Notes under the pieces: model-generated
Told to the model about the DNA's origin: nothing
Seen by the model: the letters and a program-made list of their open reading frames with translations, nothing else
The model's database searches: none
Origin: Roseobacter sp. MED193
Lineage (GTDB): Bacteria; Pseudomonadota; Alphaproteobacteria; Rhodobacterales; Rhodobacteraceae
Assembly: GCF_000152965.1 (NCBI RefSeq)
Contig: NZ_CH902583.1
Coordinates: 2,611,892-2,675,891, forward strand
Length of the DNA stretch: 64,000 nucleotides
Reading direction: 5' to 3'
Translations under genes and position numbers: made by a program
In this document: piece after piece, positions 6,931 through 26,071 of the stretch
How positions within the stretch are numbered: position 1 is the stretch's first letter
How the letters are laid out: each line of letters begins with the position of its first letter

Positions 6931-7005
6931 GCCCGGGTAGCTCAGGGGTAGAGCAGTGGATTGAAAATCCTCGTGTCGGTGGTTCGATTCCGCCCCCGGG
7001 CACCA
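6931..7005 (+). tRNA. tRNA-Phe (GAA)
   Basis: The acceptor arms gcccggg (6931-6937) and cccgggc (6995-7001) pair fully. The D-arm tagctcaggggtagagc, the anticodon stem-loop ggattgaaaatcc with anticodon GAA, and the T-arm ggttcgattcc are all present. CCA is encoded at 7003-7005. The gene's 3' part is duplicated at 18959-19005, which shows it is the integration site of the element that follows. The tRNA remains complete because the inserted element carries the same 47 bp. Confidence 0.97.
6959..7005 (+). repeat. attL: tRNA-Phe-proximal attachment repeat
   Basis: This 47-bp stretch, from the anticodon arm through the encoded CCA, is identical to 18959-19005. Identity stops on both sides: g against t before it, c against t after it. 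Such a repeat of a tRNA 3' end is the usual mark of tyrosine-integrase insertion. Confidence 0.95.
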
Positions 7006-7104
7006 CTAAATCACTGAAATAGTTGATTTATTTGGTCCGTTGAGATCGTCAGATTTCACCCGTAAAAGTTACACACAGTTATACACTCCTCTGACGGGCT
7101 CGAT

Positions 7105-8292
7105 TTGTCCCAAGATTCCAAAAACCGAATACTCAAGATCAAGCATCTCCGGAAAGGGCTGGCCATCGTGCTGACAGCCCGAAGCCCGTACTGGCTTATT
7201 CGCTTCAGAGACCCCCTTGCAGGGAAATACGTCCACCGGTCTTCCAAGGAGACATCGCGTCTCGAAGCGATTGAAGTGGCCTATGAGTTTGCCGACTCAT
7301 ACCGCAGCAAGGCCAACAGCGACCATGCTCAGAAGAAAGCCACCAGCTTCGAGCACTATGCCAAGAAGCTGATGGGCATTCAGAAGGGCAAGTCCAAGTG
7401 GTCGGACGGCGACAACAAGCTGCTGAACCGCTCCAAGGACGGGCTGATCTGCTATTTCGGTAAGTATGACGTCACGAAAATCACCACCGGCAAGGTTCGG
7501 GATTACCTGATTCATCTGGACGAGAACCGGCCAAAGCGGCTGGCAGAATCGACCAAGGCCAAACACACAATCATCATCCGCAAAGTTCTGACTCTGGCGG
7601 TGGAAGACGGCATTCTGAACGTGCTGCCGGTGATGCCCAAGCAGAAGACCGTGGACACGCCACGACACACCTTCACGGACGACGAATACAAACGGTTCAT
7701 GAAGGCTGCCGGTGAGTGTGCCAAGCGTGGGGATATGGTCCGTGGCGTCCAGATCACCGGCCACCATGCCAAGATGTTCCGGTTTGTCGTTCACACCTTC
7801 CTTCGGCCTACTGAGGGCGAGCTGTTCGGGCTGAAGCACAAGGACATTCAGATCAAAGGCGACCCGCCGCACTTGGAAATGAACGTCCGAGGCGGCAAGA
7901 CCGGTGGCCGCACTAGCGTGACAATGCCTTTGGCCGTTCCGCTCTATCAGGGAACCCTGAACCCGTTCGACGAGAACGGACCTGACCGGAACGGCTATGT
8001 GTGGATGCCGGAATATTCCAACCGCAGGACAGCCATCAATACGGCCCGGCGTCTGTTCAACCATATCCTTGAAAAGGCCGAGCTGCTGGATGAAGACAGG
8101 AAGCTGTCTCCGTACTCCCTCCGGCATTTTGCCATCCAGGCACGTCTCAGGGGGTCTCAGGGGAAGGTGAACCTTTACACCCTGGCCAAAAATGCTGGCA
8201 CGTCGGTGGATCAGCTGGAGCGCTTCTATCTGAAAAACATGGCCCCGACGAAAGAGCTGATCGAAAACCTACAGACACGTGGGGATGACTAG
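7105..8292 (+). CDS. int: Tyrosine recombinase / integrase of the element
   Basis: A 395-residue site-specific recombinase expected to insert and excise the element at tRNA-Phe. An N-terminal arm-binding-like part is followed by a core-binding helix bundle and the catalytic domain. Catalytic residues can be placed as Arg in FLRPTEGELFGLKH, Lys in RGGKTGGRTS, the SLRHF box, and the tyrosine in LERFYLKNM near the C-terminus. It lies 99 bp from attL, transcribed inward, as usual. The start is a TTG at 7105 with a weak ribosome-binding site; a later start is possible but would cut the N-terminal domain. Confidence 0.92.
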   Translation: MSQDSKNRILKIKHLRKGLAIVLTARSPYWLIRFRDPLAGKYVHRSSKETSRLEAIEVAYEFADSYRSKANSDHAQKKATSFEHYAKKLMGIQKGKSKWSDGDNKLLNRSKDGLICYFGKYDVTKITTGKVRDYLIHLDENRPKRLAESTKAKHTIIIRKVLTLAVEDGILNVLPVMPKQKTVDTPRHTFTDDEYKRFMKAAGECAKRGDMVRGVQITGHHAKMFRFVVHTFLRPTEGELFGLKHKDIQIKGDPPHLEMNVRGGKTGGRTSVTMPLAVPLYQGTLNPFDENGPDRNGYVWMPEYSNRRTAINTARRLFNHILEKAELLDEDRKLSPYSLRHFAIQARLRGSQGKVNLYTLAKNAGTSVDQLERFYLKNMAPTKELIENLQTRGDD

Positions 8293-8375
8293 CCCCGCAG
8301 GCCGTTGACTGGAACAGTGGCGTTGTCTGCGATTGGGATAAGGAGGACGCCGTTGGGGTAGCAAAGGAGACCCCA

Positions 8376-8741
8376 ATGGCACTTGAGAAACAGTTCAAAC
8401 TTGAAGCCGCCGAGAAGCCGAAGGCAAGCCAGCCGTCGAGCCAGCGCCGTCAGAAATTCATCGCCGCCATCGACAAGCAGCTGGCGGGTATGCCGGATGG
8501 TGATGCCAGCACGATCAAAAGCACTTGGGTGTGGAAATCGGATCAGGGCGATTGGTTCATCTCGCCCCGCTACGGGAAGGCTCCCCTTGAGCTGGCCCCT
8601 GGCCTGAACGCCATCAAATGCACCGATGCCAAGGAGGTGGCCGAGAACCTTCAGAAGCTGAAGGCACTGGCAAGCGAAGGCAAGCTGGATGATGTGCTGG
8701 AAGGGGCCGCGTCGGCCATCCGCAGCCGCTTCGGCAAATGA
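8376..8741 (+). CDS. DUF6641-like protein
   Basis: A 121-residue basic protein with no assigned function. The C-terminal half, with VWKSDQGDWFISPRYGK, then LELAPGLNAIKC, then EGKLDDVLEGAASAIRSRFG, closely follows the pattern I recall for DUF6641, a family found in prophages and integrative elements. The N-terminus is lysine/alanine-rich. It lies 83 bp after the integrase on the same strand and may share its transcript. A role in DNA binding is only a guess from the charge. Confidence 0.65.
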   Translation: MALEKQFKLEAAEKPKASQPSSQRRQKFIAAIDKQLAGMPDGDASTIKSTWVWKSDQGDWFISPRYGKAPLELAPGLNAIKCTDAKEVAENLQKLKALASEGKLDDVLEGAASAIRSRFGK

Positions 8742-9638
8742 GACGGCAGGCGGGCTGCAGAACCAGTTTGACCAAAGGCCGAACTCAAAACTCAGCCCGC
8801 CCAGCCCAAACAGCCAGCAAATCCTATGGCACATGCGAAGCACTTCACGAAGTGAAGCCATAGCCAATTTTTGGCCAATCGCTTGATCACTTTGTGATCA
8901 AGAACTGCGTTTGTATCTGTTTGGTATTATTGGACATTGGACATACTTCTCCTATCCGTTGAGGAGAAGCCTGTGAGACCCGAAGGTCTGACAAACCATC
9001 CACACACGATTGCTTTCCAAAGCGCGGCTGGCGGTTATCCGGTCTCAGCCTACGTGCTGCTCAAACAGCGGACCGATATGCTAGCTTTACGTGGACGGCA
9101 GTTCGGCTAGCTCGGCGACGGCACTTCCCCGTCTCGTGATGACAATTATTTTGCTCTGGCTCTCTGATGGGGGCTTTCATCCTTCCCCCGCTTTCGCTGT
9201 CTCCTAACCCTACTATTCGATGACGTCCTGTCTGCTGACCTACTGGATTCGGTTCGGCACCATCCGGCGGAGATTACCTTCTGATTGCATGACGCTTCGG
9301 GCTGTCTATGTGGTTGTCTGTATCGCGTTCCTGATACGAGAGAGCTGCGAGCTGTGTTCAATATGGCTGTGTGTGCGGTGGGTATCGGTGTGTGATGCTA
9401 TTTATACGCCGAGGACCACGGGTTTCCCGAGTTTCACGGCGATTTGGTCAAAAAGGGAGAAACTCCCCCAGACACCCGGAAACGGGGCAGATTCTCCCAC
9501 GGCCCCGGCGGTTTGCCCCGGCTGCCGTCACAGCTGGCAAAAATAGTATTTGTTCTGTATGGGTGTAGTGGAACAACTTTTACCATTTTTGCCAAGGCGG
9601 CTCGTTCACCTCATAGCCTCACCAAAATCCAGGGTCCC
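8742..9638. other. 900-bp gene-free region with hairpins upstream of the polymerase
   Basis: I see no convincing gene. Several inverted repeats stand out: ctatggc (8824-8830) with gccatag (8857-8863) enclosing cttcac/gtgaag (8843-8857); cttgatcac-ttt-gtgatcaag (8882-8902), a perfect 9-bp stem; cttctcc (8947-8953) with ggagaag (8964-8970); and tggcaaaaat (9535-9544) with atttttgcca (9585-9594) before the polymerase start. The region could hold promoters, an operator, a replication start or a small RNA. None of these roles is shown by sequence alone. Confidence 0.6.
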
Positions 9639-12413
9639 ATGCAAGCCAAAGTCAATTTTCGGCCTGATCAGTTTTTTCCCAAGAACAGGAAAAGCTCGAA
9701 GCACATTCGTTATCTTGTGATCGGCTTCGACACCGAGTACCAGCGGGAGGCAATTGTAAATGCAGATGGCCTGGCCGAAGTCCGCAATCAGGTGCTGTCC
9801 TATCAGTATAGCTGCCATGCCATCACACCCGACAACGCTGGTGCAGAGCAGCATTGGTCCGGCATTGTGCTGCCGGAGGGACCATCTGACGATGACCGGC
9901 TGACCCTGGCTGAGTTCTTGGAACATGCATTGCGGGACGGATTCACGACGCACCCCAATCTGAAGCTGCCGGTGGATGTTTACTTGGTGGCCCACTTTAC
10001 ACGGGCTGACGTGCCGGGATTTTCTGACTTCAAGGAGGAGAAGACCCGGAAAGCCATGAACTTAGACAATATCCGCAGCCTGTTCATGAATGTGAGCAAG
10101 GATATCAAGGTCAGCCTGAAGCGGGGCGACAAGCTCAAGCCAATCAAGCTGCATGTCAAAATCCGGGACACCATTGCTCTTGCGCCCACGGGTGCCAAAA
10201 GCCTTGCCAAGCTGGGGGAAATCCTTGGCTATGAGAAGCTGAAGCTGTCTGACGACCCAAAGCGGGAACAGCACTACAAAGAAAACATGGGGGAGTTGCT
10301 GGAAGCCGATTGGCCGCTGTTCCGGGACTATGCCATCCGGGATGCCGAGGTCTGTGCACAATACACTATCCGCATGATCCGGCTGTATTTTGACAAGACC
10401 GGGGTGTTCAAGCTGCCGGTGACACTGACGTCCATCGGCGTTGATCTGATCCAGGAACACTGGCGGTCCCAAGGGCTCAACCCGCTTGAAATCGTCGGCA
10501 AAGAGATGGTGGCGGAGAAGCGGTGGAACGCCAAGACAAATCGCTATGTGACCAGCACTGAGGCTAAGTCCCTGCCGAAGCTGTTCTGGAGCGAGGACTT
10601 TTTCACCGAGTGCTATCATGGCGGGCGCAATGAACAGTTTTGGTTCGGCCCTGCCCCCGAGGGTGTCTGGTACGACTATGATCTTGCCAGCGCATACCCA
10701 TCGGCCATGGCGCTCATCGGGGAGCCTGATTGGTCAACCATCACACCCATCGCCAGCACGGAAGAATTGCTGGGTCCCAGTTTGACGGTCGAAGACCTGG
10801 CTTTTGCCAATGTGAACTTTGAATTCCCGGAAGACGTCCGGTACCCGGTCCTGCCGGTGCGCACAGAGAACGGGTTGCTGTTCCCCCGCAGAGGCAACAG
10901 CACCACCCATATCAGTGAAATCCTGCTGGCCAAGCAACTGGGCGCAAAGATTGAACTGGTGGAGGGGCGGCGGCTCGATTCTGACCGCATTATTAGCCGC
11001 AGAGACGATGGCGTCAGAGAATATGGTGGTAACGCCAAGCAGCCGTTTCACAACTTCGCCCGTCACTGCATCGATGAGCGGGCCAAGCACCCAAAGAAGA
11101 CCCTGGACAATCTGTTCTGGAAAGAGCTGGTCAATTCCACATACGGCAAGACGGCACAGGGTCTGCGGGAGCGCCGGATTTACGATCTGAGGGATGCAGA
11201 CACCAAACGGCTGGGGCCGAGCAAAATCACCAATCCGGTCTATGCCGCCTTTATCACGGCTTTCTGCCGGGGCGTGCTAAGCGAGATCATGAACGCCCTA
11301 CCTCCGGACGTGCAGATATTCAGCGTCACCACAGACGGCTTTCTGACCACGGCCACAGATGCGCAAATGACGGAGGCTGCAAAGGGGCAGCTGGGCCGCA
11401 GGTATCTGGACTCCCGGATCAAGCTGGCCGCTCAATGGGGCATCTACGAAGTCAAACACATCATCCGCCAACCTGTTGGGTGGCGGACCAGAGGGCAAGC
11501 CACGCTGCGCCCATCTGTGGCCGCTGACTGGGACGGCACAGGTATGGTGCCCAAAGAGGATGAGCGGGTGGTGCTGGCTAAGGGCGGGATCAAGCTGGAC
11601 GCCATGCTGTCCAAGCCTGAGCAGAATGACAAAATCGTCGATCTGTTCTTTGACCGCAAGCCAACCGACACCCTGACGGTGACGATGGGCGCTGGCATCC
11701 GGGAGATGTATGAGCAGGGAATGGATTTTGTAGACAAGACCATGACCAAACGGCTGTCTATGGAGTTCGACTGGAAACGCAGGCCAAAGGCGGCGGGAGA
11801 GGTTACTGTCACAACCGGCGGCGGGCAAAGCCGCACCCATTTGGCATTCTCGACCCAGCCCTGGGACACAGTGGATCAGTTCAACACCACGCGGGACATC
11901 TGGGCGGACTACAACAAGCAGACCCCGTATTGCCTGAAGTCTCTCGCTGACTATCAAGCATGGGCCGGGTATTTTGAGGGCAAGCTAGCAGCACAGGGGC
12001 CTGCTGGGGCCTACATCGCCAAAGAGGACGGTGTCCTGAAACGCCTCCGCCGGGACCTCAGCATAGCGCATAAGCTGCGGAAGGCGGGCACCCACAAAAT
12101 CAATGTGGCGTCGTTCAGCGGCGGCGGTATCTCCCCGGACAGCAAGCTCAAGGTCAAAGACTTTGCGCGCATCCTGAATGATGGCTTTGGCATTCCTTGC
12201 ACGAAGATGGATGTGGACAATGCCCGGAAGAAGACAGCTTTCGTTCCGCATCAGGTGCCGCGGACAGCCAAAACCGTAGAGCTGCTGGGATACATCAAGG
12301 AGACGCTGTTCCCCGAATTGGAGGTGGAGCAGTTTCTGACCCCGGAGGCTGCGTTCAGCCTTGATGTGGAGGTTGCTGAGATGTCGCTGCCACCCCGTGA
12401 TCCGGTAGCTTGA
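9639..12413 (+). CDS. Family-B DNA polymerase, primer-independent (piPolB) type
   Basis: A 924-residue replicative-type polymerase. The 3'-5' exonuclease motifs are visible: D31-T-E33, an AHFTRAD segment near 118-124, and Y231-A-I-R-D235. The polymerase motifs follow: D348-L-A-S-A-Y353-P-S (motif A), K495...N499-S-T-Y-G503 (motif B), and T564-T-D566-G (motif C, usually DTD). This layout with a long C-terminal tail fits protein-primed/piPolB enzymes, which in pipolins can start DNA synthesis without a primer. No terminal protein gene is seen. ATG 9639 follows aggg; the frame is open back to 9444 but that part looks non-coding. Its last 59 bp overlap the convergent recombinase gene. Confidence 0.85.
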   Translation: MQAKVNFRPDQFFPKNRKSSKHIRYLVIGFDTEYQREAIVNADGLAEVRNQVLSYQYSCHAITPDNAGAEQHWSGIVLPEGPSDDDRLTLAEFLEHALRDGFTTHPNLKLPVDVYLVAHFTRADVPGFSDFKEEKTRKAMNLDNIRSLFMNVSKDIKVSLKRGDKLKPIKLHVKIRDTIALAPTGAKSLAKLGEILGYEKLKLSDDPKREQHYKENMGELLEADWPLFRDYAIRDAEVCAQYTIRMIRLYFDKTGVFKLPVTLTSIGVDLIQEHWRSQGLNPLEIVGKEMVAEKRWNAKTNRYVTSTEAKSLPKLFWSEDFFTECYHGGRNEQFWFGPAPEGVWYDYDLASAYPSAMALIGEPDWSTITPIASTEELLGPSLTVEDLAFANVNFEFPEDVRYPVLPVRTENGLLFPRRGNSTTHISEILLAKQLGAKIELVEGRRLDSDRIISRRDDGVREYGGNAKQPFHNFARHCIDERAKHPKKTLDNLFWKELVNSTYGKTAQGLRERRIYDLRDADTKRLGPSKITNPVYAAFITAFCRGVLSEIMNALPPDVQIFSVTTDGFLTTATDAQMTEAAKGQLGRRYLDSRIKLAAQWGIYEVKHIIRQPVGWRTRGQATLRPSVAADWDGTGMVPKEDERVVLAKGGIKLDAMLSKPEQNDKIVDLFFDRKPTDTLTVTMGAGIREMYEQGMDFVDKTMTKRLSMEFDWKRRPKAAGEVTVTTGGGQSRTHLAFSTQPWDTVDQFNTTRDIWADYNKQTPYCLKSLADYQAWAGYFEGKLAAQGPAGAYIAKEDGVLKRLRRDLSIAHKLRKAGTHKINVASFSGGGISPDSKLKVKDFARILNDGFGIPCTKMDVDNARKKTAFVPHQVPRTAKTVELLGYIKETLFPELEVEQFLTPEAAFSLDVEVAEMSLPPRDPVA

Positions 12414-13044
12414 GGTCACAGCAGGAGACATAGTTTCTAACGGTCTGTGGATACCACCTTCCGCCCTTGGCAGTCTTCACGCCACGGTCGTTCAACAGCC
12501 TTGCAGCGCCGGAAAATGATCCTGCGTCGGCAATCGCCCGCTCGAACTCGGTACGCACCGTCTCGAAGAAATCCTGCTTCTCTAGCCGCCGTTGCGCCGC
12601 CAAGGCTTGGGCATTCCGGCCAAGCACGGTTCCCCGCTTCTTGGCGGCTCTGAGCGCGGCTCTGGTGCGTTCTGAGATCTGACGGCGCTCCTCCTCGGCA
12701 AAGCAGGCCAGCAGGTGCAGGAAGAACGTCGATACGTTCGGGTGTTCGCAGACGGTCAGCTCAATGCCCTGGTCGATGATCCCCGATATGAACGACACCT
12801 TCCGGGAGAACCTGTCCAGCTTCGGGATCAGCAGCTTGGACCGGGTTTTCTTGACGAGGTTGATCGCGTTCCACAGCTCTGCCCGGTCGTCACGCTTGCC
12901 GGACTGGATTTCGGTGAACTCGGCAATCACGTTGTCGGCGGGCTGAAGGAACTGCTCGACCATCGCCCGCTGCGCTTCCAGCCCCAGTCCAGACCGTCCC
13001 TGCCGTTCCGTCGAAACCCGATAGTAGACAACATATTCTGCCAT
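12355..13044 (-). CDS. Small serine recombinase (resolvase/invertase type)
   Basis: A 229-residue recombinase with the YYRVSTERQG catalytic-serine motif at the N-terminus, LLIPKLDRFSRKV with the conserved Arg/Asp positions, and a basic helix then a C-terminal helix-turn-helix (GAARLLNDRGVKTAKGG). Such enzymes resolve, invert or insert DNA through a serine-DNA link. The frame is open to 13377, but the added N-terminus is unrelated to the family, so ATG 13044 is preferred. The gene converges on the polymerase gene and overlaps its 3' end by 59 bp. It may act within the element, for example to resolve dimers. Confidence 0.87.
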   Translation of the reverse strand: MAEYVVYYRVSTERQGRSGLGLEAQRAMVEQFLQPADNVIAEFTEIQSGKRDDRAELWNAINLVKKTRSKLLIPKLDRFSRKVSFISGIIDQGIELTVCEHPNVSTFFLHLLACFAEEERRQISERTRAALRAAKKRGTVLGRNAQALAAQRRLEKQDFFETVRTEFERAIADAGSFSGAARLLNDRGVKTAKGGRWYPQTVRNYVSCCDLKLPDHGVAATSQQPPHQG

Positions 13045-13286
13045 TCCGCTCCCTCCGTAGCCGACAAACGTTGGTTTGTCGTAGACGGCGTCCGGCAGGT
13101 TGGGCGAAATCTCAACAGGTTGACACCCGAACCGTATCCGCTTTCTGTAGCCCCTCCGCGAAAGGCGAGTTGCATTCTTGCCACTCATCTTTGAATAAAG
13201 ATTCCACCTTAAGTGTTTTGTTGTTCCCGTTTGCGATCTGGACCAGATTTCACCCCTAAACTGCAAACTACCTTGGAGACGTTTCT

Positions 13287-13664
13287 GTGAAGCGCAAATT
13301 CCTCTTGCCACTTTGTATTGCTGCTGGGCTTGCCGCCTGCGCACAGTCCACCATTCAGCCGATGTCGCTGGACACATTCAAAGTGTCCACTGTGGCGGCA
13401 CCAGCGTGCGGACCTAATGGCGCGCGCAATGTTGCATTCAAGACTGCGGCGATCGAAGTCATTCGTCGGGGTGGCGATAAATTTATGCTGACGGGCGACG
13501 CGTCGCAGTCCGACTTTTGGAGCGGGAGCCACAACCAATCCATGGTCGTGAAAGTAGTTCCCGAGGGTAGCCGGGAAGCCAAAAATGCACTTTCCGCCCG
13601 CCAACAGCTCGGGTCCAACTGGCAAGAAGTTTTAGCGGAAGGCTCCCCGACAACTTGTGAGTAA
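13287..13664 (+). CDS. Small lipoprotein, unknown function
   Basis: A 125-residue product with a clear lipoprotein signal: a basic MKRK start, a short hydrophobic core LPLCIAAGL and a lipobox LAAC with cysteine 18. The rest has two further cysteines (in PACGPNG and TTCE) that could form a disulfide. I recognise no family. The GTG at 13287 is placed well behind ttggaga. It is inside the integrative element, between the recombinase and the convergent secreted-protein gene, so it is cargo. Confidence 0.7.
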   Translation: MKRKFLLPLCIAAGLAACAQSTIQPMSLDTFKVSTVAAPACGPNGARNVAFKTAAIEVIRRGGDKFMLTGDASQSDFWSGSHNQSMVVKVVPEGSREAKNALSARQQLGSNWQEVLAEGSPTTCE

Positions 13665-13753
13665 TACTTCTGAGCGAGTGTGGAAACTGCCCGGGCCTTC
13701 TGTAGTTCGGGCAGAGTTTCTCCGCCCGCACACAGTCGCAAAGTCCCGACGAC

Positions 13754-15349
13754 TTATTCGAAGCTTGGAGTTCTTGCGCCCAAGGTGGCCTTTTTGAGGA
13801 CAAGCCTGACCTCACGGTTTTCCGGCTGCTCGACGCAAAGCACTTGACCCTGGGCTCCCTTGCCGCAACTGGATAGCTGCCAGTATGGCTCCCTGAATGC
13901 GAGTGCGGGGCCAAGCCCCATTGCTGACATTGCTAGCGCCTCGGCGGTGTCCTGGGTTATGAATTGTCGGCTCGCTTCCATTGCACCCACAACGCCTTGC
14001 TCCATGAGGAAGCCTGAAACTTGCTCGAAATTGTAGGCGCAGACGTCAAAGGTTTCGCAGCTGAAGGTGATCTCCTTTTCTGTGATATCAATGAGCGCAT
14101 CGCCGCGACTACAGGAAAGCCCTCCAAGCAGGTCGTCACTGCATTCATATCCATGGGCCAAGAGAACGGTTTGCATTTCCGCCAGCTTAAGCGACCAGCA
14201 GATACCCTTCAGGGTGACAAGTCCGTCGCATCTCGAAGTTAGCCCCGTTGCGGCATCTGTCGCCTGTGCAACCTCTTTAGCCTGCCTTTCTTGATCCAGC
14301 TCATCGGCAAGCTTGCGGATTTCAGCAATATCATCCGCCCATTCTTCGCGGTGTTCTTGGGATATGGCATCTAGCAGCTCGCGCGCCCTGTTAGTGTTTA
14401 CCCCCAGGACCTCGTTCACCCCTTGTGGGAGGTCTGGATCGCCAACCAAACCACTGGCCAACCAGATCAAGGCGGTATCATCTTTCCCGGCTGCTGCATA
14501 TTGCAGGCAATCCACGATCACACGCGCATCCGGCGGATTAGCAAAGCTCAAATGCTTGAACTCATCATATCCGCCCATGAGAGATATCGTAAGGAGTGTC
14601 GCGCTGGAAGGCTCACCATGAATAGCCGCCTTGGCCCAAAATTCATGCGCTCCTTTGTGATCACCGATATCATACAGAACATATCCATAATATTCAGCCG
14701 CGATGGGTATTTCGTGGTCGGCAATGATATTTTCAATTTGGCGTTGGTCTGAAGGCCTGAGAGCGCTGCCGTTCTTCGCTGAGTTTTCAAGTGACTCGAT
14801 GATTTTTTCCACCTGGTCTGGCACCTGCTGCCACGGGATGCTGCCAACTTCCATGTTGCCGGTCCAGTAATCTCTCGGCTGCGCGTTGCATTGAAAATTC
14901 TTTGGCAGGCGGACAGTGAGATCGGCGCTTGCCAACGTCTGTTGCTCCACCTGGTCGCAGCCGTCGCATTCGCCTCCTTCACCCCACATAAAGGCGCTGG
15001 CCGAACCGTCGGCAAATTGGCTTAAGAAGGCACGTGCGCGTTCGGCGTTATCCAGGTGCAACTCAGTTCCCATGTTCTGTTCCATCATGCCAGCTGCATG
15101 ACGGAGGGCGTTTGCCGTATTCCTTCCCCAAAGACCGTCCAGCGTACTGTCATACAAGCCGTATTCAGCAAGGTGGGATTGGATTCTGATGCGGTCACGC
15201 TCACCCAGATTTTTAAACTCGCTCTCCAACAGCCAGTGTGTGCTTTCAGTAGTCCGTGACTGTGCTGTCGTTTGGGCGATGCTTGGCACTGCCTCACAAA
15301 ACGTAAAAATGGGCAGTGCAAGGAAAGTTAAAAATGCATTTTTTTTCAT
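13754..15349 (-). CDS. Secreted protein with peptidoglycan-binding-like and Sel1/TPR-like parts
   Basis: A 531-residue exported protein. ATG 15349 gives a good signal peptide, MKKNAFLTFLALPIFTF with a cut after SIAQ; the frame is open to 15406 but that adds a non-signal leader. Residues about 50-90 (LAEYGLYDSTLDGLWGRNTANALRHA) look like a peptidoglycan-binding type 1 repeat. The middle (EYYGYVLYDIGDHKGAHEFWAKAA) resembles Sel1/TPR helices. The C-terminal half has many cysteines in short spaced groups. Envelope role is inferred; the exact function is unknown. It is cargo of the 12-kb element. Confidence 0.65.
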   Translation of the reverse strand: MKKNAFLTFLALPIFTFCEAVPSIAQTTAQSRTTESTHWLLESEFKNLGERDRIRIQSHLAEYGLYDSTLDGLWGRNTANALRHAAGMMEQNMGTELHLDNAERARAFLSQFADGSASAFMWGEGGECDGCDQVEQQTLASADLTVRLPKNFQCNAQPRDYWTGNMEVGSIPWQQVPDQVEKIIESLENSAKNGSALRPSDQRQIENIIADHEIPIAAEYYGYVLYDIGDHKGAHEFWAKAAIHGEPSSATLLTISLMGGYDEFKHLSFANPPDARVIVDCLQYAAAGKDDTALIWLASGLVGDPDLPQGVNEVLGVNTNRARELLDAISQEHREEWADDIAEIRKLADELDQERQAKEVAQATDAATGLTSRCDGLVTLKGICWSLKLAEMQTVLLAHGYECSDDLLGGLSCSRGDALIDITEKEITFSCETFDVCAYNFEQVSGFLMEQGVVGAMEASRQFITQDTAEALAMSAMGLGPALAFREPYWQLSSCGKGAQGQVLCVEQPENREVRLVLKKATLGARTPSFE

Positions 15350-15456
15350 GATCTCATTGGCCTTAGGTGTTTTCAGGAGGCTAGCGGCGTTACCATTTTC
15401 GATCAACTAACGCGCGACCACATGCCGGGAGAAAACCTTTTCACGGTCCTCAGTGG

Positions 15457-16074
15457 TCATTCGCTAACGGGAGAGAGGTCCTGCAGATCGAACAAATACG
15501 TTCTGCGGGCCAGCTTTGGAGTACCGCCTGTCAGAACTGACCAAGTCGTCCGCAGGCACTGGTTTTCGTCCATGTTGCCGCGCTTGAAGGAGCCTGAGAA
15601 CGTGACCGGCGCACCTTCTTCGAGGCCCAAGACTGTGCTGCGAAGCCAGCTTGGCACCTCGGCCCTGATCTTGTTGCCGAAGCCGATTTCGACCTCGACG
15701 TACATGTCTTCGCTGGAGTCGGTCAGGTTTGCCTCATCGAAGATACCAACCCAGCCCGTCTTACGATCAAACGGGGCACGGGCGCACAGCTTTTGGTTTC
15801 CGGTGATGTATGCGGCAGCCTTTGCTGCATCGTTGACAGCTTCGTCGGCCGCTGCAATGGCTTTGCCAACGATACCGAGGAACTGTCGTTGGTCGGAGGG
15901 GGCCTGAGTTGCAGCCAGATCCTGGAATTTGCTTTCTCGGGGATCAGTGAAGAAAATGGTGTAGATCACGTAGCAGATGCCGAGAAACAGGATCAGCTTG
16001 ATGACGTCGATGATGCTGCCATCGTCCTTCGCTTCAGCGGTTGTCTTGCCGCCGCCTTCCTGGGTGTCTGTCAT
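15457..16074 (-). CDS. Membrane-anchored protein, unknown function
   Basis: A 205-residue protein with a short charged cytoplasmic N-terminus (MTDTQEGGGKTTAEAKDDG), one strong membrane helix (IIDVIKLILFLGICYVIYTI) and a periplasmic domain of about 150 residues. That domain has a beta-rich look (VGIFDEANLTD, VEVEIGFGNKIRAEVPSW, VTFSGSFKRG), similar in feel to nucleic-acid- or ligand-binding barrels, but I cannot name a family. ATG 16074 is chosen since the longer frame to 16275 adds an unlikely basic leader. It points the same way as the secreted protein gene 107 bp away and may be co-expressed with it. Confidence 0.6.
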   Translation of the reverse strand: MTDTQEGGGKTTAEAKDDGSIIDVIKLILFLGICYVIYTIFFTDPRESKFQDLAATQAPSDQRQFLGIVGKAIAAADEAVNDAAKAAAYITGNQKLCARAPFDRKTGWVGIFDEANLTDSSEDMYVEVEIGFGNKIRAEVPSWLRSTVLGLEEGAPVTFSGSFKRGNMDENQCLRTTWSVLTGGTPKLARRTYLFDLQDLSPVSE

Positions 16075-16344
16075 GCTGGTATTCGCTTTCCTGTTAATGA
16101 TGCTTTGCGTGGGCATGCTCGGGACGCGTTTGGGATTTCCGAGCTGTAATAGCTTGGTCACTGCTGGCGGGGTGGAGGCCAACGGCTGTTTCCTGTCGGC
16201 AGGCGGAAATTTTTTGACCCGGTCGCGCACCCATATGACAATCCGCCTATGGCGATAGAAGGTGGTCGCCAGCACAAGAAATGTGATGATGTGTTTGGCT
16301 TCATGCGGCCCCGATCAGCGAGCGCCCTCGCGGTTGACTGGTGA

Positions 16345-16504
16345 TCGGGGTGTTGGAAATCCGCACGTACACGGACCCTGTGCCTTTAGCCGGAGCCTGT
16401 TGTATAACACAGGCACCCCGACCATAGGTCAAAGGTGTTCAGCCGAGTTTACGGCCTAGTACGTGAGGGGTTTCCACGCCCCAACATGGCCGCGTCTGCC
16501 ATGT
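16345..16504. other. Run of stem-loops upstream of the nuclease operon
   Basis: Three inverted repeats lie in 160 bp of gene-free sequence: tcggggtg (16345-16352) with caccccga (16414-16421), enclosing gcctgt (16395-16400) with acaggc (16409-16414), and then acatggc (16484-16490) with gccatgt (16498-16504). The surrounding gap, 16075-16670, has no supported gene. It could be a leader, a terminator for neighbouring units, or a structured RNA. Confidence 0.45.
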
Positions 16505-16670
16505 CGGGAGCAGTCGTAGCAGCTAACTCGCTGGAGCAAAAGAGAAGCTTTCAACGCTGAAAGGGCAGGTATTTTCAGACTTGGCCCCGTAGAGTGCAAA
16601 CTGCTGGTGTTTGCCCGCCGATTCACTTAGGGGTTGTGGGCGAAGGACACCAAAAGTTGAGTAGGGGTAT

Positions 16671-17717
16671 ATGCAGGAACTCTTGCGGTCTATGCGGCAC
16701 CGAATGACGTGGACAAATGCACGCATGCTTCTCCGGATGGGAGGGGTTTCCACCAGTCATGGTTGGGATCAAACTCTGAAGAAGGTCACCGAGAGCGGTG
16801 TGAAGGTCGACTACGGCAAACTCGAAGATTGCTTTGTCGAGCACCTGCTTTGCGGGGAAAAATACACCAAGCTGTATCCCGTTGATCCGGCGCTTCGAGA
16901 CGCCATCCAGACAAAGATTGCAAACGCGAGCGTTGGCACCTCGCCAGCTTCGGCATCGTACCCTTACCTAATGTCTGAGAAAGAGCTGGCTGAGGGGACG
17001 GGTGACCTGAACGTTGTCCAGGTCGAAAGCAACGAGGATGGTGTGGGTATCATCTACTCGTCGGTTCTTTGGGTGAAAACAAGAGAGGAAATCTCTTTCG
17101 AGGACTTCGATCACCCTCAGGATATGAAAAACCGCTATGAGGAGGTCATTGGCCTCGCTCGGAAGCCTGTCCAGATGTACCACGTCGTTTGGATGCCCCA
17201 CCATAGGGACTTTTTGGAGATCCGCGTAGACGCTCCCCGTGGCATCATCGAAGCGGATATACACGCGCTGCACTCACGTATGAAGGATGAGGTAAACGCG
17301 TGGGGTGTTGTTAAGCTGGAAGGCTCGGTGAACCTTTTCCCTGCGGTGCTCCCCTTCTACGAGGACGCTACCGAAGGCACTGTAACGCAGATGACGTTTC
17401 AGACGACTACTGGTGCAATCAAAGACGAGAAGATGCCCAGGCGGCGGCGTGACGCTGATCAGCGGACAGAAGCATACCATGTTGCTGGAAAAGAGGCTGT
17501 TGAAGCTATCGCAATTTATCGGATCACTGTTGAGTGGGGCTTTGCCGAGGACGACCTGAACTTCATCCCATCTGTGACGCTCGGGGCTTCTGGGCCAGCT
17601 GGCGCCCAAAGCAAGGATCCTCTGATCTCTGGCGCACTTGTTAAGAACTGTGTGCGAGCTTCGGACTATGAGTTTGTTATTGAAAGACTCGGGAAAAAGG
17701 CCAAGCTAGATAGTTGA
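16671..17717 (+). CDS. Unknown protein, first gene of three-gene element operon
   Basis: A 348-residue soluble protein that I do not recognise. It has no signal peptide or membrane helix. Runs such as VGIIYSSVLWVKTREEISFEDF and VQMYHVVWMPHHRDFLEIRVDAPRG suggest alternating strands and helices. No Walker, HNH or nuclease motif is evident. A basic MPRRRRDADQR patch lies near the C-terminal third. The ATG at 16671 follows aggggt. An 18-bp gap leads to the second gene, and the third starts about 1 bp after that, so the three look like one operon placed against attR, where integrative elements commonly keep defence or other accessory cargo. Confidence 0.7.
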   Translation: MQELLRSMRHRMTWTNARMLLRMGGVSTSHGWDQTLKKVTESGVKVDYGKLEDCFVEHLLCGEKYTKLYPVDPALRDAIQTKIANASVGTSPASASYPYLMSEKELAEGTGDLNVVQVESNEDGVGIIYSSVLWVKTREEISFEDFDHPQDMKNRYEEVIGLARKPVQMYHVVWMPHHRDFLEIRVDAPRGIIEADIHALHSRMKDEVNAWGVVKLEGSVNLFPAVLPFYEDATEGTVTQMTFQTTTGAIKDEKMPRRRRDADQRTEAYHVAGKEAVEAIAIYRITVEWGFAEDDLNFIPSVTLGASGPAGAQSKDPLISGALVKNCVRASDYEFVIERLGKKAKLDS

Positions 17718-17735
17718 ACGGAACCGCGTGAGGGC

Positions 17736-18128
17736 ATGGACCTAGGTGATTTCAGAGAGCGTCTAGCTAGTTCTAGGCTAGAACCGCGTACGCTAGGCGT
17801 TTGCCTAGCGTTGACGGACGTGCTGTCTGATGTGCGCCCCGGTGATGGTCAACACCTTGGCTTGGCTTTTTTTCGTGAGAGACTTGAAGGGAATACCTCC
17901 TACGATGAAATTTTGCCGGCTCTAAGCATCCTATGCAGTTTCGAGGGTGCGATTCTGGAGATGCACGGGTATCTGGATGATGCTGAGGAAGGGCAGCTGC
18001 ATCTGCAGGATGAAGATTTCAGCGAGCTGCTAGTATCGGGGCAATTGGTTCACCCAGTTTCGGGCGAACAGGTCCCGAACCCCATGGCGCATGTCCGAAT
18101 TTTCTACTCGCTGCGGGGTGATGCATAG
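17736..18128 (+). CDS. Small acidic protein, middle gene of the operon
   Basis: A 130-residue acidic protein without a recognised family. The central ILPALSILCSFEGAILEMHGYLDD and the ending VPNPMAHVRIFYSLRG suggest a helix pair and a beta hairpin, possibly a winged-helix-like fold, which is only a guess. The first 25 codons lie in DNA unusually rich in CTAG and contain a perfect hairpin, cgctaggc-gttt-gcctagcg at 17791-17810. ATG 17736 is used; a start after the hairpin is possible. It is tightly followed by the nuclease-like gene and may be its regulator, partner or antitoxin. Confidence 0.62.
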   Translation: MDLGDFRERLASSRLEPRTLGVCLALTDVLSDVRPGDGQHLGLAFFRERLEGNTSYDEILPALSILCSFEGAILEMHGYLDDAEEGQLHLQDEDFSELLVSGQLVHPVSGEQVPNPMAHVRIFYSLRGDA

Positions 18129-18129
18129 G

Positions 18130-18750
18130 ATGTCGCCTGAAGACCTGACGCTAGAGCAATATCTGGCTTTCTGCGGTGGAGGACCGGCAGCGCGCGTTCT
18201 TCGCTGGCAAATCGCTAAGACCCATTCGGCACGAGTGCAGATCATCGAAGAGGCCTTGGCTGACTACTACAGTCGTCTCGTTGACACACGGGGCCAAGAC
18301 AAGAAATTTGGCGAGGACGCTTTGACAATGCAGCTTGCGAACATGCTTGCCGCAGGCGGCATCCCTGCTGTTCATGATGAACACGTCAACGGGCATTGCG
18401 ACCTTGTGATCCGTGCTAATGGTAATTTCATGTGGCTCGGAGAAGCCAAGGTGCATGGCGGCTACAAGTGGCTTGATGACGGCTTTCAGCAACTGTCCAC
18501 GAGGTATGGTACCGCCATGGAGGGTAGAGATCACGGCGAACTGATTATCTACCACCGGCAGGGTGATAGCCGTGCAGTGCTTGAGGAATGGCGGGACCGT
18601 CTTACAGCTGCGAATGACAATGTGGCTGTTTCTGAAGATATCGAGAACCAGCGCTTGTATTTTCGAACAGAGCACACGTGTGCAAACTCCGGATGCACGT
18701 ACTACACCAGGCACCACATTGTTCCTTTGATGCATGATCCCAAAAAGTAG
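18130..18750 (+). CDS. Predicted PD-(D/E)XK-type nuclease
   Basis: A 206-residue protein. Residues from about 60 to 125 show the order expected for a PD-(D/E)XK core: a helix with Glu in FGEDALTMQLANML, Asp in HCDLVIR, then E-x-K in MWLGEAKVHGG, and a Gln-bearing helix DGFQQLSTRY. A C-terminal cysteine group (TCANSGCTYY) is also present. This is the fold of restriction and repair nucleases, so DNA or RNA cleavage is inferred, not shown. ATG 18130 begins 1 bp after the previous stop; in-frame ATGs at 18121 and 18091 are alternatives that would overlap it. Confidence 0.68.
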   Translation: MSPEDLTLEQYLAFCGGGPAARVLRWQIAKTHSARVQIIEEALADYYSRLVDTRGQDKKFGEDALTMQLANMLAAGGIPAVHDEHVNGHCDLVIRANGNFMWLGEAKVHGGYKWLDDGFQQLSTRYGTAMEGRDHGELIIYHRQGDSRAVLEEWRDRLTAANDNVAVSEDIENQRLYFRTEHTCANSGCTYYTRHHIVPLMHDPKK

Positions 18751-18958
18751 CCGTAGCGCTATGCAATCGAGGGTGGGGCGGTGCTCTGTGCCGGATGGTG
18801 ATGTCGCACACCTCCGGCTGAGTCGAACCACAGGCGCGGTCTGTCTATTTTTATCTTAATTTCAATACCTTAACGCAGTTTCACCTGCGGTCGGTAGAAA
18901 GGTTATACACATAACTTAGCACTCACAGGTAACCATTTGATTTTATTATTGGTAATGT

Positions 18959-19005
18959 GATTGAAAATCCTCGTGTCGGTGGTTCGATTCCGCCCCCGGG
19001 CACCA
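18959..19005 (+). repeat. attR: distal attachment repeat (tRNA-Phe 3' fragment)
   Basis: Identical for 47 bp to 6959-7005. The upstream tRNA part is absent, so this is a fragment and not a second gene. A short motif gttatacac occurs near both ends, at 7077-7085 beside attL and at 18902-18910 beside attR; these could be arm-type integrase sites. Confidence 0.93.
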
Positions 19006-19367
19006 TTATCCACACGGATAATACACGTAATATATTGATTACTATGAATACTTCTGTTGACAGGCGCTTCCTGAGGGAGGTGACTGTATCACATTTCGGG
19101 GCTTGCCCGTGTTGCGCTGGCGCTACTGTGCAAGTGTTTTTGAATAGGAGTTTTCTTCGTTCGATTTGGCTTGTGAGGCATAAATAGCCAGCACGAGTTC
19201 AATCTGTCTTGTTCTGTTGAACCACATTGTTCGTGACTGAGTTAGAGCGGCGCCAAGCATACGCCTCAAGAAGATGGCCGCCTCAGAAATCTGAAAGCGG
19301 CCTCAATGAATTGTTTAAGTGAAATAGTCAGTCAGGTGGAAATTCTCGCCCTAGCTGTGGGCATACT

Positions 19368-19523
19368 TTAGGCGTTTGCAAGTCTCCGGATACGCTCCAT
19401 TGTATCTGTTTCGGCTTTCAAAGCTGTCAGTTCTGACTCTATCCTCTCGAATAGTGGCACATACAAGCTACCGTCGGATCGGCTCGCAATCGCCTTAGCC
19501 AAGTAAACTTGATATTCTTCCAT
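19368..19523 (-). CDS. Possible 51-residue protein
   Basis: A short open frame starting MEEYQVYLAKAIASRSDGS and continuing VPLFERIESELTALKAETD to a final RIRRLANA. The sequence is highly helical, charged and free of low-complexity bias, as expected for a small real protein with a C-terminal amphipathic helix. The ribosome-binding site is poor, with an a-rich stretch before the ATG. It lies just outside attR in the second mobile region. I know of no family for it, so it remains a candidate. Confidence 0.45.
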   Translation of the reverse strand: MEEYQVYLAKAIASRSDGSLYVPLFERIESELTALKAETDTMERIRRLANA

Positions 19524-19898
19524 TTTTTTTATTGTTATTTTCAAAGATCTTCGCCTGGTAATTGTTATGTCGACATATTTCCCAGAGCTCAGTTAATCTG
19601 ATGTTAAAGAATTTGACGATCCGGCTCTGCGCCAGGCTTGGGTAAGTCGGCTGGTGCCCTCCTCAAGCAGTCCCGGTATTGGTATGAGCCGCCCCGTATG
19701 GCCGCATTGCAGCTCACTGGCCTCGATAGTCCGAACAACTGAGGGCCAGAAGTAGAAGCTCAGGTACGTTCTGCATGGAATATCGCATCTGAGGAGATTG
19801 GATGGCTTTCACGTTGGCGCAAAAGGCATCGCAAAAATGCGGAACAGGCAAGCATTGTCCATAATGTATCCCAATTATTACGTAATTTTCTTAAAGCG
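19524..19898. other. Gap without supported gene
   Basis: Between the small frame and the hairpin after the primase-helicase gene I see no gene or structure that I can support. Short open segments here are probably remnants. Confidence 0.4.
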
Positions 19899-19946
19899 GA
19901 GGGGACCCCCCTTTTTTGCCGTGCTCCGAGAAAAGGGGGTCCCCTC
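19899..19946 (-). terminator. Long stem-loop after the primase-helicase gene
   Basis: The arm gaggggacccccc plus tttt (19899-19915) pairs with aaaagggggtcccctc (19931-19946), with one bulged C. The stem starts only 3 nt beyond the stop codon at 19950-19952. Its position and strength suggest a terminator for the minus-strand gene, although a clean t-run after the stem is lacking. Confidence 0.7.
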
Positions 19947-19949
19947 TGA

Positions 19950-22900
19950 TCAACCTGAGCGGAAGTCAGTTAGCGGACCTGTCAGTGCCTCAATCAAGCA
20001 CTTCAATTGGTCAGCTCTTCCAAACGCCAGAGCTGACTTTTTCCTAGACCTTTGGCCTTTCCCAACTTTAGGCCAAAACTGGACTAGGCTGGGGCCCTTA
20101 CCGTCAGAAACCCCATATAGATTACTTCTATATGGCAGATCTGACACTAACTTCGCGCGGTTAAGGTCGGCGGAAGCGGTTTGGGGGTTGGTCCAGATAT
20201 CTGGCATGTAACGAGCGCAGTCTCGGGGTGACAGAAATAACACCCCATATTTTTCAATGGCCCGCTCGGTTCGAGTTCCGCCCTGCTTGAAATCCTGCCA
20301 GCCTACCACTTTGTCCACGGTGGCATTGACGACAACTGGACTTAGCAAGTAAACGGCCTTCGGTTCAGAGTTGTGGATGAGCCGGATTCTGTCGATGGCT
20401 TGCTCGATCTCAGCCTCGCGGATCTGCCGAAGTATCCGGTCTCCCCATAGGTCCGGGTGAGCGAAGACATCAATGGAAACCGTGTCCCCGGATGTTCTGA
20501 TGCCTCTAGGCACCTTCTTGTAGTCTCCGGACGTAAATCCAGCGCCACTTGCTGCAGCATAGGCCCGAGCGATGCCCTCGACGCTCTGCGGGCTTGGTTG
20601 TTCCCTTCCGATGACGATCACGGTGTCCTTATCTTCCCAGTAATTGCGGCCGCGCAGGGCTCCGAAGTGGCCTGCCTTGTGCGACCCCGCAGATGCCAGT
20701 TCTTTGATTATTGGTTTGTTGCTGAACAGGGCTGCCTCTGGATGCCGCTCCAGTACGTTCTGGAGATCGCGAAACAAGTTTTTACTCTCCGTAGCAATCT
20801 TGCCAAAAAGTGGCTCCCCGTTGTTCTGAATTCCAAGGACTCGGCGCTTTGAGAAATTACAACCCACAACCTGTGTGACATGTGCATTTCGTTCAACAGG
20901 ATGATGGTGGCAAGCCAGATTAGTCCCGAAGACAGCCCTCGACACATCTGCGTCGGCCGTTCCATCCAGATAGAGAAAAGGTTGATCTGCCCCATGTTTG
21001 AGTGGCCGGATCCGGACGGCTTGAAAGCCTGGCTGCTGGTTAGGGTCGCGCTTATCATTCCTCGCTTTGGTAACCGAAGTGGCAAACTCATTAGGACCAT
21101 CAATTTCCTCCATCATACACTCAAACAGGATCTGTAATTGCTGGATTGTCTTCGTCGGAAGTCTGAGTAACCGTGTTCCCAATAAATTCAGGTCATTCAG
21201 TGTCGCCTCTCTGCCATCAGTCTGCAGGACGCTGTGAACTTCTCGGACTGCACCAAGAGGGCCAAACTGCCTAAGATCATCGATAGCCTGCTGCAATAGT
21301 ACCTTGGTGATGCCCTGTTCCCTTAAAGCGTTGAGAGAGACACCAGCTGACTGCCCCGCCGATTTCAGCAGCGCGTGCTTGATTGGTTGGATTGCCGCCT
21401 GTTGTTCGAAGAGGGCCTCGCCGATTAGAACCGTCTTTGCGTCTTCAGACCGAACATGAGGGGAAATATCCGGGATGATGTCATCCACCAATTGGGACAG
21501 CGTCACATGAACGTTTTCCACGGCGAAATCTCGGGGGCGTTCATCAAATACAACGAGATCTGGCTTTGCTTCTCCAGGTAAATCGATGAATGCAAAGTCA
21601 TGTGGCGCAAACATAACCAGCCCGCGTCCGCCTTTTAAATGTGACTCAATTTCAGCTTCTTGCCGCAAGTACCCGCATTGTGTTCTAAGTGGGCATCTTG
21701 GACAGAGATTGGTGCGAACTGACACTCCGTGTTCGTTCAGTTTATGGGCAACTTTGTAAGCCAGGCACATTCGAGTATCTGAGGTAACGGCATATGGATC
21801 GGGTTGGTTACGCCCACGTACCACAACTGCCGGAGGGGCTCCCGCTGGGGCATTAGTTGTGTAGTCAGTAAACGCTTCTCCAGCTTTCTCGTGTTGAGGC
21901 AAGAACATAGCTGAAACCAATCCGTGAGCTTCATGCAGAAGCCCTGATTGCCCATTTCGCCCGACCAGAACAGAAGTTTTCCCGACTCCCATGGCACCAG
22001 ACAAAAAGGCCCGAGGAGGCAGTAAGTCAGGTCCAGTCTTGGGACACGACTTTTGAACATTTAAAAAATGCGTCGAATTTTTAAACCAAGTTCTGATTGT
22101 GTCTGAGTGTTTCTTGATCGCAACCTGGCGATTTTCGGTGGGCGCCGGATGAAACGGTTCCAGTGCTTTAGGTTTTTCCCCAAGAATAAGTGGGCGGTCG
22201 ATGCCGACGCGCAGCCCGTTATCAACGGCTTCTTCGTATCTGTTGTGGCCAGTGGCCGCGGCCGCAGCCAATAATTCTGACCGGGCTTCATCCAAATTGA
22301 TTTTGCTACCAGTTACGTAGCCACCGACACGCTGGGATTGGTTGAAAATTGCGGTATTGCCCATCTTGCCAGATCGAATCCGCTCGCATACATCCTGCAA
22401 GATCTGGCGCCCCTTATCAGTCGTCGTTGCACACGAGCTTGAAATCGGCGGCGACAGTTTCTGTTTGGTGCCAGAGGACGGCGGATGGGCTTTCTTTTTC
22501 TTGGCTGGCCTTGGCAAGGAAAGGCTTGGAAAGCCAATGCTTGCAGTGTCGATGAACTCTCGCGCTCCCAGGAAACACCCGGATCTCGACCGTCCAGCCA
22601 AAGGGTCTTCGACACCGTCAAATACCGGTGCTGCAGTGTAGTTGGGTTGTGCGATGCCGGCGGCGCTTTTGTCGCTTCCGACAGTTGCAAAAAGATACTT
22701 TCGTTCAGTAGTAGTGAGTGGCCTGTCTGCAAGGCACCAGAAGTGAAACTTTGCCAGGTACTCTTTGCCTTTGGTGGCGGCGCTGGAGGAAGCCTGCCAA
22801 AAAACTGAAGCACTTTTCAGAGCAGGCAGCTGGTTAGTCACATTATCCCAGGTCCATTTGGCCAGTGTTTGAGGGTCATCCCAGCATAGGTGGGCCGGTT

Positions 22901-23267: not shown

Positions 23268-23485
23268 ATTTTCTGCTCCTGGGACCAGCGCGGGCGCGGG
23301 AGGAGGGCAATCAAAATGTCAGATAAATACATCTTCTTGAAAATCATGTGCTCAAATCCGGCCTTTGCGGCTCTTGTTGCAGCCGGCGAAATTGCTCGGC
23401 TTGGAGCAACATGAGGGGGGAGGGTTTCGCTGAAATTTAAGGAAACGGCCCGTCTTTTACGTTTGCCAGCGCTGAATAACTGAGC

Positions 23486-23621
23486 CTTGCCAAGGCAAGT
23501 GAAGGCAATCCAGATCTTGGGAAACCTTGGAATTCCAACCCTTGGTTTGCCTTCTCAAGGGTTACCCTTCCCCCCTTCCAATGGAAGGCATTTGAAATAA
23601 ATTCTTGCGAAACCTTGGTTT
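23486..23621. repeat. Palindrome-rich locus between primase-helicase and parA
   Basis: The 400-bp divergent gap holds many short inverted repeats built on ccttgg: cttgcc-aa-ggcaag (23486-23499), aacccttg/caagggtt around 23537-23563, ccttcc-aat-ggaagg near 23576-23590, and aaacc-tt-ggttt (23610-23621). Repeated aaccttggtttgcc words appear twice. Such clusters are typical of replication origins, parA operators or centromere sites. It sits just upstream of parA. Confidence 0.6.
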
Positions 23622-23668
23622 GCCATAGTGGGTTCAAAGATAACACATTTGAAACAAGGCATAATTCA

Positions 23669-25854: not shown

Positions 25855-25960
25855 TCGAGTTGAGCCACAGTGATCTGCGGTTCAAGCTCAAAGTTCAAGG
25901 TTTCGGAAGGATGTCACACAATCTGACGGGACCAGAGAAGACAGCAGCATAGACTAATGC

Positions 25961-25987: not shown

Positions 25988-26024
25988 AAGTACGTTGGTT
26001 TTGTTTGCGAAGTGAACTGTTGTA

Positions 26025-26047: not shown

Positions 26048-26071
26048 CCAAGGCTCGTTCTGAGACACCGT

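What the first reader, a model, noticed from the sequence alone, without database searches (positions are those of the whole stretch)
6959..19005. A 12,000-bp pipolin-like element in tRNA-Phe
Seen: 47-bp perfect repeats of the tRNA-Phe 3' end, an integrase beside attL, and a family-B polymerase with all main exonuclease and polymerase motifs. Known: pipolins are integrative elements defined by a piPolB gene, best studied in E. coli and a few other groups. Inferred: this is a Roseobacter-group pipolin with a tRNA-Phe target and a cargo set that I do not recognise from described examples. The repeat offset is exactly 12,000 bp.
Basis: partly seen in the sequence, partly recalled or inferred. Interest (0 to 1): 0.85.

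Follow-up and report, generated by a model that had tools for sequence, protein, structure and literature searches.

The report
Roseobacter pipolin inserted in tRNA-Phe
A 12-kb mobile DNA element that carries its own, probably self-priming, DNA polymerase sits in a transfer-RNA gene of a marine bacterium; it belongs to a small group of related elements, most of which carry beside the polymerase an almost unchanging stretch of non-coding DNA whose job is unknown.

Summary
A perfect 47-bp repeat of the tRNA-Phe 3' end lies at 6959-7005 and 18959-19005, exactly 12,000 bp apart. A tyrosine integrase starts 100 bp inside. GTTAYACAC, a likely arm-type integrase site, occurs three times in 64 kb, all at the element's two ends. 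The 924-aa polymerase is piPolB-type: its best plasmid match is a known pipolin plasmid, motif C is TTDG, and it sits in a clade of ten roseobacter polymerases (support 100) apart from archaeal PolBs. Related elements in several genera lie at tRNA-Phe. No terminal-protein gene was recognised. A collinear empty site was not shown: the locus is a hotspot. So: a pipolin, a new member of a known kind, apparently transferred between genera. Block B (16294-16537) holds an sRNA-Xcc1-like RNA (below Rfam's threshold), also found on alphaproteobacterial plasmids. The right-hand cargo slot holds known defence genes in two sister elements.

The parts
6931..7005 (+). tRNA-Phe (GAA), integration target; its 3' 47 nt (6959-7005) are the attL core
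   Evidence: ARAGORN; repeat
7068..7086 (+). two GTTAYACAC sites inside the left end, probable arm-type integrase sites
   Evidence: only 3 matches in 64 kb, expected 0.30, 0 of 100 shuffles reach 3; conserved in relatives
7105..8292 (+). tyrosine integrase, 395 aa, TTG start
   Evidence: phrog_1 1.8e-23; Phage_int_SAM_5
8376..8741 (+). 121-aa conserved core ORF, function unknown
   Evidence: phrog_31551 5.5e-10; 17-row alignment; AF2 pLDDT 81.9, no PDB match with E up to 0.001
8930..9400 (.). Block A: conserved non-coding block, candidate structured RNA or replication origin, strand undecided
   Evidence: 312 of 450 columns (8930-9379) invariant in nine elements
9538..9593 (.). inverted-repeat-like motif AAAAATAGTA..TTTACCATTTTT upstream of piPolB, conserved in relatives (limits approximate)
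   Evidence: alignment; matches at 796-858 of the query in relatives
9639..12413 (+). piPolB-type family-B DNA polymerase, 924 aa
12355..13044 (-). serine recombinase (resolvase type), start by alignment to relatives and inference
   Evidence: Resolvase 2.6e-24; 75-95% protein identity in sister elements of the clade
13287..13664 (+). 125-aa ORF, lipoprotein-like signal by eye, unknown
   Evidence: no Pfam match
13754..15406 (-). left cargo, 550-aa probably secreted protein (by eye), shared with some sister elements
15457..16275 (-). left cargo, up to 272-aa protein, shared with L065 and L069
16294..16537 (.). Block B: conserved non-coding block containing an sRNA-Xcc1-like RNA on the minus strand (16423-16335)
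   Evidence: 44.2 bits against gathering 53, E 1.2e-6 in a 501-base scan; homologues
16671..17717 (+). right cargo operon, 348-aa protein
   Evidence: phrog_12777 1.5e-45, unknown function; 1 of 198 family genomes, its own
17736..18128 (+). right cargo operon, 130-aa protein
   Evidence: phrog_11490 7e-8, unknown function
18091..18750 (+). right cargo operon, 219-aa protein, nuclease-like D...EAK motif by eye
   Evidence: phrog_9664 3.2e-39, unknown function; motif recalled, not tested
18902..18910 (+). GTTATACAC inside the right end, probable arm-type site
18959..19005 (+). attR core, copy of the tRNA-Phe 3' 47 nt

Best explanation
The stretch 6959-19005 is an integrated pipolin of a roseobacter lineage that targets tRNA-Phe. 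Proposed working: the tyrosine integrase binds the att core and the arm sites at both ends and recombines attL with attR, which gives a 12.0-kb circle and leaves an intact tRNA gene. The piPolB-type polymerase copies the circle, or fills and repairs single strands, without an external primer. The serine recombinase resolves multimers. No relaxase was recognised, so the element would reach new cells on other elements, by DNA uptake or in particles. Its right-hand slot holds exchangeable genes, probably defence. Shown here: the repeat, the arm-like sites, gene order, sequence kinship, shared target site and a polymerase history at odds with the host genus. Inferred: excision, priming, role in replication, resolution, route of transfer, defence.
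Against: No collinear empty site; the DNA to the right is another foreign-looking region. The experimentally tested E. coli piPolB could not be put in the tree (searches found nothing). Rows from Staphylococcus and Fusobacterium are on long branches, so deep order is unsure. In the wider family only 10 of 394 genomes have a related polymerase, several as fragments.
Confidence: 0.9

Rival explanations
1. A provirus or linear plasmid with a protein-primed PolB (phi29/PRD1 type), integrated by a tyrosine integrase; one of the small ORFs would be the terminal protein.
For: The fold is nearest to phi29 DNA polymerase among solved structures, and several small ORFs have no known function.
Against: Only 1 of 50,697 phage records matches by tblastn, over 21% of the query, while the plasmid hits include a known pipolin plasmid. 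Motif C is TTDG. No terminal inverted repeat beyond 7 nt between the outermost 200-nt stretches inside att. No capsid or terminal-protein family among ten ORFs.
Confidence: 0.05
2. A decayed genomic island: once a pipolin, no longer able to excise or replicate.
For: Remnants are seen in the genus: G395 has an integrase in pieces, G394 lacks piPolB but keeps integrase, serine recombinase and part of Block A, and G327's polymerase is in two pieces.
Against: In the window the integrase, 121-aa ORF, polymerase and serine recombinase frames are open, both att copies are perfect, and the catalytic polymerase motifs are kept.
Confidence: 0.15
3. For Block A: it is the replication origin (or single-strand start site) of the circular element, read as DNA.
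For: It lies between core genes, next to the polymerase, beside palindromes that recur in Ruegeria copies. In the genus it is whole only in the two genomes with piPolB. Its strand cannot be told from wobble pairs.
Against: L067 has an intact polymerase frame and no Block A. Parts persist in G394, G397 and G399, which lack piPolB.
Confidence: 0.45
4. For Block A: it is a structured non-coding RNA.
For: Hairpin 8972-8993 keeps pairing in 65 of 72 cells with five further pair types, reached by 0 of 2000 shuffles; hairpin 9080-9111 in 49 of 54, reached by 23 of 2000. Consensus folding beats column shuffles on both strands, z -3.6 and -7.2, 30 shuffles each.
Against: Two other helices vary too little to tell (2000 of 2000 shuffles reach them); the single sequence folds no better than shuffles (z -1.26 and -0.52); no Rfam family; L067 lacks it.
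Confidence: 0.35

Closest known systems
Integrative pipolins of E. coli (passages of PMC7385651 and PMC9710591)
   Same: piPolB gene inside att-like direct repeats that overlap a tRNA gene, tyrosine recombinase, variable cargo of mostly unknown genes
   Different: Target is tRNA-Phe, not the Leu-tRNA of E. coli; host is a roseobacter; core adds the 121-aa ORF, a serine recombinase and Block A. The E. coli sequences themselves were not compared here
Plasmid pipolin pSE-12228-03 of Staphylococcus epidermidis (S. epidermidis plasmid pipolins are named in a passage of PMC9710591)
   Same: Homologous polymerase (29.3% over 59% of the query, 5e-37), a recombinase-family gene
   Different: Circular plasmid with a relaxase gene; no integrase among the 8 annotated genes
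Pseudosulfitobacter pseudonitzschiae plasmid copies (30 records; L064)
   Same: Roseobacter host, related polymerase next to a site-specific integrase gene
   Different: Only 25.7% identity over 37% of the query; on 276-281-kb plasmids; IS66 genes lie between the annotated pieces in L064. A 2024 pipolin paper that mentions this genus is recalled, not seen
sRNA-Xcc1 (RF02221; passages of PMC2996969 and PMC12444791)
   Same: The core of Block B aligns over all 87 model positions
   Different: Score 44.2 is under the gathering score 53; embedded in a longer conserved block; found here on a pipolin and on alphaproteobacterial plasmids rather than in Xanthomonas integron cassettes

Membership tests
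pipolin | Encodes a piPolB-type family-B polymerase by sequence | tested here: met
   Best plasmid hit is a pipolin plasmid; motif C TTDG; clade and distance from archaeal PolBs. The E. coli reference enzyme was not in the tree
pipolin | Polymerase starts DNA synthesis without a primer | not testable with these tools
   Needs the purified enzyme
pipolin | Flanked by att-like direct repeats, often at a tRNA gene (integrative type) | tested here: met
   47-bp repeat at tRNA-Phe, arm-like sites
pipolin | Site-specific recombinase beside an att end (usual, not universal) | tested here: met
   Integrase 7105-8292
pipolin | Passes the published piPolB profile at E up to 1e-50 (ExplorePipolin criterion, passage) | not testable with these tools
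   The profile is not held here
protein-primed PolB element | Terminal protein gene and terminal inverted repeats | tested here: inconclusive
   None recognised in ten ORFs; no inverted repeat beyond 7 nt at the ends; terminal proteins are poorly covered by profiles
sRNA-Xcc1 (Block B) | Covariance score at or above Rfam's gathering score of 53 | tested here: not met
   44.2 bits; homologues L201 36.2 and L187 32.6 bits. So it is called sRNA-Xcc1-like, not filed as a member

The most novel reading that the evidence does not exclude
Block A is a new structured element of about 450 nt (RNA or single-stranded DNA) that works with the self-priming polymerase as its template, start site or regulator, so that these pipolins are a two-part polymerase-plus-nucleic-acid system, comparable in logic to retrons or defence reverse transcriptases with their RNAs.
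Probability: 0.2. Interest if true: 0.75.

Novelty: new member of a known kind. Interest (0 to 1): 0.42.

Why it matters
What piPolB does for its element in the cell is described as still unclear (passage of PMC9710591). This group gives closely related, integrated pipolins in marine bacteria that share att sites, arm-like sites and, in most copies, a strongly conserved non-coding block beside the polymerase. That turns a general question (where and how does a pipolin start its replication?) into an experiment on one stretch of about 470 bp. The right-hand slot, with known defence genes in two sister elements, also makes the three-gene operon here a candidate new defence system.

Tried and rejected
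Block A as a coding gene: rejected. Gap runs of 1 and 2 nt are common in the nine-row alignment, and the longest stop-free frame in any row is 105 codons and differs from row to row. Block A as a known RNA: the only Rfam rows over it are far under their gathering scores. Block A on plasmids or phages: no match. Block A beside other piPolB groups: only weak matches (E 0.3) in L073 and L071, not convincing when aligned; pairwise scans of two other pipolin groups showed no like block upstream of piPolB. Strand of Block A: wobble pairs point both ways.

Block B as an origin of transfer or a leading-region single-strand promoter: followed because homologues lie on conjugative plasmids, in 6 of the 13 contexts opened (of 40 records) beside ParB-like/antirestriction or DUF3991-toprim genes (passages of PMC11541004). 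Dropped as the main reading when Rfam gave sRNA-Xcc1 on the minus strand; not excluded.

Other searches: viral contigs gave no relative of the polymerase, of the 348-aa ORF or of the 219-aa ORF; these scans used single sequences and reach close relatives only. The 348-aa ORF is in no phage record. Fold search of the 121-aa ORF: best E 0.3, PURA chains among the weak hits, not used. Sequence search of the PDB for the polymerase: nothing of use. E. coli piPolB for the tree: two DNA searches from distant relatives found nothing. Print: the pipolin/piPolB search listed 14 papers; a mixed search listed 8 of 701, none holding 'pipolin'. Block A was not seen in these listings and passages, but the 2017 paper is not held and a 2024 paper is only recalled, so I do not claim that it is unpublished.

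Rows dropped before counts: the tree left out eight loci by hand (L084, L094, L115, L117, L119, L121, L126, L127) and rows under 560 aa. The AF2 alignment left out L088 for a stop codon. The Block B structure run left out L053, L066 and near-duplicates, leaving 25 rows.
Full report
What was checked. The 47-bp perfect repeat of the tRNA-Phe 3' end lies at 6959-7005 and 18959-19005, 12,000 bp apart; its 25-nt 3' part is found only at those two places in 64 kb with up to three mismatches, against 0.00 expected. tRNA-Phe is the only tRNA in the window. Ten ORFs inside were scanned with Pfam, PHROGs, NCBIfam and PADLOC: a tyrosine integrase, a PolB, a serine recombinase, and otherwise families of unknown function, weak matches or nothing.

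Ends. Alignment of relatives shows a conserved sequence inside each end. Its core, GTTAYACAC, occurs exactly three times in the window: twice just inside attL (7068, 7078) and once inside attR (18902); 0.30 expected, and none of 100 shuffles reached three. This is the arrangement expected of arm-type sites of a tyrosine integrase and supports the limits independently of the repeat. It also resembles a DnaA box (recalled). Three relatives (L065 and L076 Ruegeria, L077 Phaeovulum) show both flanking repeats on one stretch. Of the ten other elements of the clade, eight have a complete tRNA-Phe beside the integrase; L066 starts at a contig end and L068 begins at the second att of a tandem array. 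L077, outside the ten-row clade, is also at tRNA-Phe.

Distribution and transfer. 10 of 394 family genomes, the window's own included, carry a related polymerase; some are incomplete: G045 is a 42% fragment with two stops, G238 and G178 are cut by contig ends, G327 is in two pieces. In the genus 2 of 12 genomes hold it, G000 and G400, while 12 of 12 match the tRNA-Phe query. An integrase homologue beside tRNA-Phe or an att copy was seen in five of the 12 (G000, G394, G395 in pieces, G400, G403) and not in the stretches fetched for the other seven (some contigs were short). EL27 (G400) holds three att copies with integrases at two. The window's polymerase is nearer to Ruegeria (path 0.2) than to its genus-mate EL27 (0.55), which argues for transfer between genera. 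A collinear empty site could not be shown: the DNA right of 19005 looks foreign itself, with a 1105-aa protein without Pfam match, a ParA-like fragment, a GmrSD-like gene (under its cut-off) and an IS21-type element.

Block A. Between the 121-aa core ORF and piPolB lies a block more conserved than the genes. Against G200 the DNA is 86% identical over 8752-9394 and 70% over piPolB. In nine elements 312 of 450 columns (8930-9379) are invariant, and the block is not coding. Hairpin 8972-8993 keeps pairing in 65 of 72 cells with five further pair types, reached by 0 of 2000 shuffles; hairpin 9080-9111 in 49 of 54, reached by 23 of 2000; two other helices vary too little and all 2000 shuffles reach them. 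These shuffles do not keep relatedness. Consensus folding beats column shuffles on both strands (z -3.6 and -7.2, 30 shuffles each), but the single sequence does not fold better than shuffles. A profile search of the loci held finds it whole in nine of the eleven elements of the clade (window, L015, L065, L066, L068, L069, L070, L072, L080), as a 100-nt part in L076, and not in L067, whose polymerase frame is intact. Parts lie in four further places: G394, G397, G399 and the contig end of G238. It was found in 4 of 394 family genomes, all four among those with a related polymerase, in 5 of 12 genus genomes, whole only in the two that hold piPolB, and in no plasmid or phage record. The L067 case counts against an essential role; an origin proper to this lineage, or an RNA, remain open.

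Block B. A second conserved block, 16294-16537, precedes the right-hand operon. It recurs in L082, L080, L068 and L066 and, cut by the end of the stretch, in L070, while the window's right-hand operon was not found in these loci. It is in 14 of 394 family genomes, two of them at E near 0.001, and in 40 plasmid records, 34 typed conjugative. Its core aligns on the minus strand to all 87 positions of sRNA-Xcc1 (44.2 bits, E 1.2e-6 in a 501-base scan, gathering score 53), and two homologues give the same family. In a 13-kb scan of the window it did not reach E 1. sRNA-Xcc1 is described in Xanthomonas integron cassettes with symE (passages of PMC12444791). I read Block B as an sRNA-Xcc1-like mobile RNA; helices of the longer block covary in 25 sequences.

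Cargo. The two left cargo genes have homologues in some sister elements. The right operon (16671-18750) matches three PHROGs of unknown function. In the right-hand slot L065 carries a HEPN protein, a GmrSD-type protein matching NsnA and PD-T4-2_A, and a methyltransferase; L080 carries a strong RmrA and a weak RmrT match; L076 carries glycosyltransferase-, sulfotransferase- and transposase-like genes instead. A defence role here is likely but unproved; PADLOC gave only one weak match (PDC-S54, E 0.0057).

Verdict. The element is real and was read correctly; it is a new member of a known kind.

Noticed in passing
window 19006-29833: Right of attR lies another foreign-looking region: a 1105-aa protein without Pfam match, a ParA-like fragment, a GmrSD_C-like gene and an IS21-type element with 31-bp ends (27336-27366 / 29803-29833).
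   Followed up: partly
L006 and L014 (G327 C4 171000-173198 and 184359-184940): The piPolB gene of G327 lies in two pieces about 11 kb apart that overlap by some nine codons, as after insertion of another element.
   Followed up: no
L181-L193 (plasmids), L194-L203 (family genomes): Block B homologues form a widespread alphaproteobacterial plasmid and island element longer than the Rfam sRNA-Xcc1 model, with long-range covarying helices; on some plasmids a small leftward ORF starts close to it.
   Followed up: partly
window 33008-33307 and 41303-41602: A 300-nt repeat, 100% identical, 8,295 bp apart, beside two integrase-core (IS3-like by eye) genes of equal length.
   Followed up: no
L082 (JAHVJD010000011.1): A contig filed as Nocardioides marinus has the same length as G238 C11 of the window's own family and carries a tRNA-Phe-type pipolin, so it is probably misassigned.
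   Followed up: no
window 8841 and 8882; L065, L066, L067 upstream of piPolB: A palindrome (CACTTCACGAAGTGAA) left of Block A occurs once here but in several exact or near copies in Ruegeria elements, like iterons.
   Followed up: no
window 7068-7086 and 18902-18910: The arm-like sites GTTATACAC(A) also fit the DnaA-box consensus (recalled), so a DnaA role at the ends is not excluded.
   Followed up: no
L071 (CAKZOO010000012.1): A bin named Flavobacteriaceae carries a polymerase 59% identical to the window's, grouped with Thalassobacter; probably a misbinned contig.
   Followed up: no
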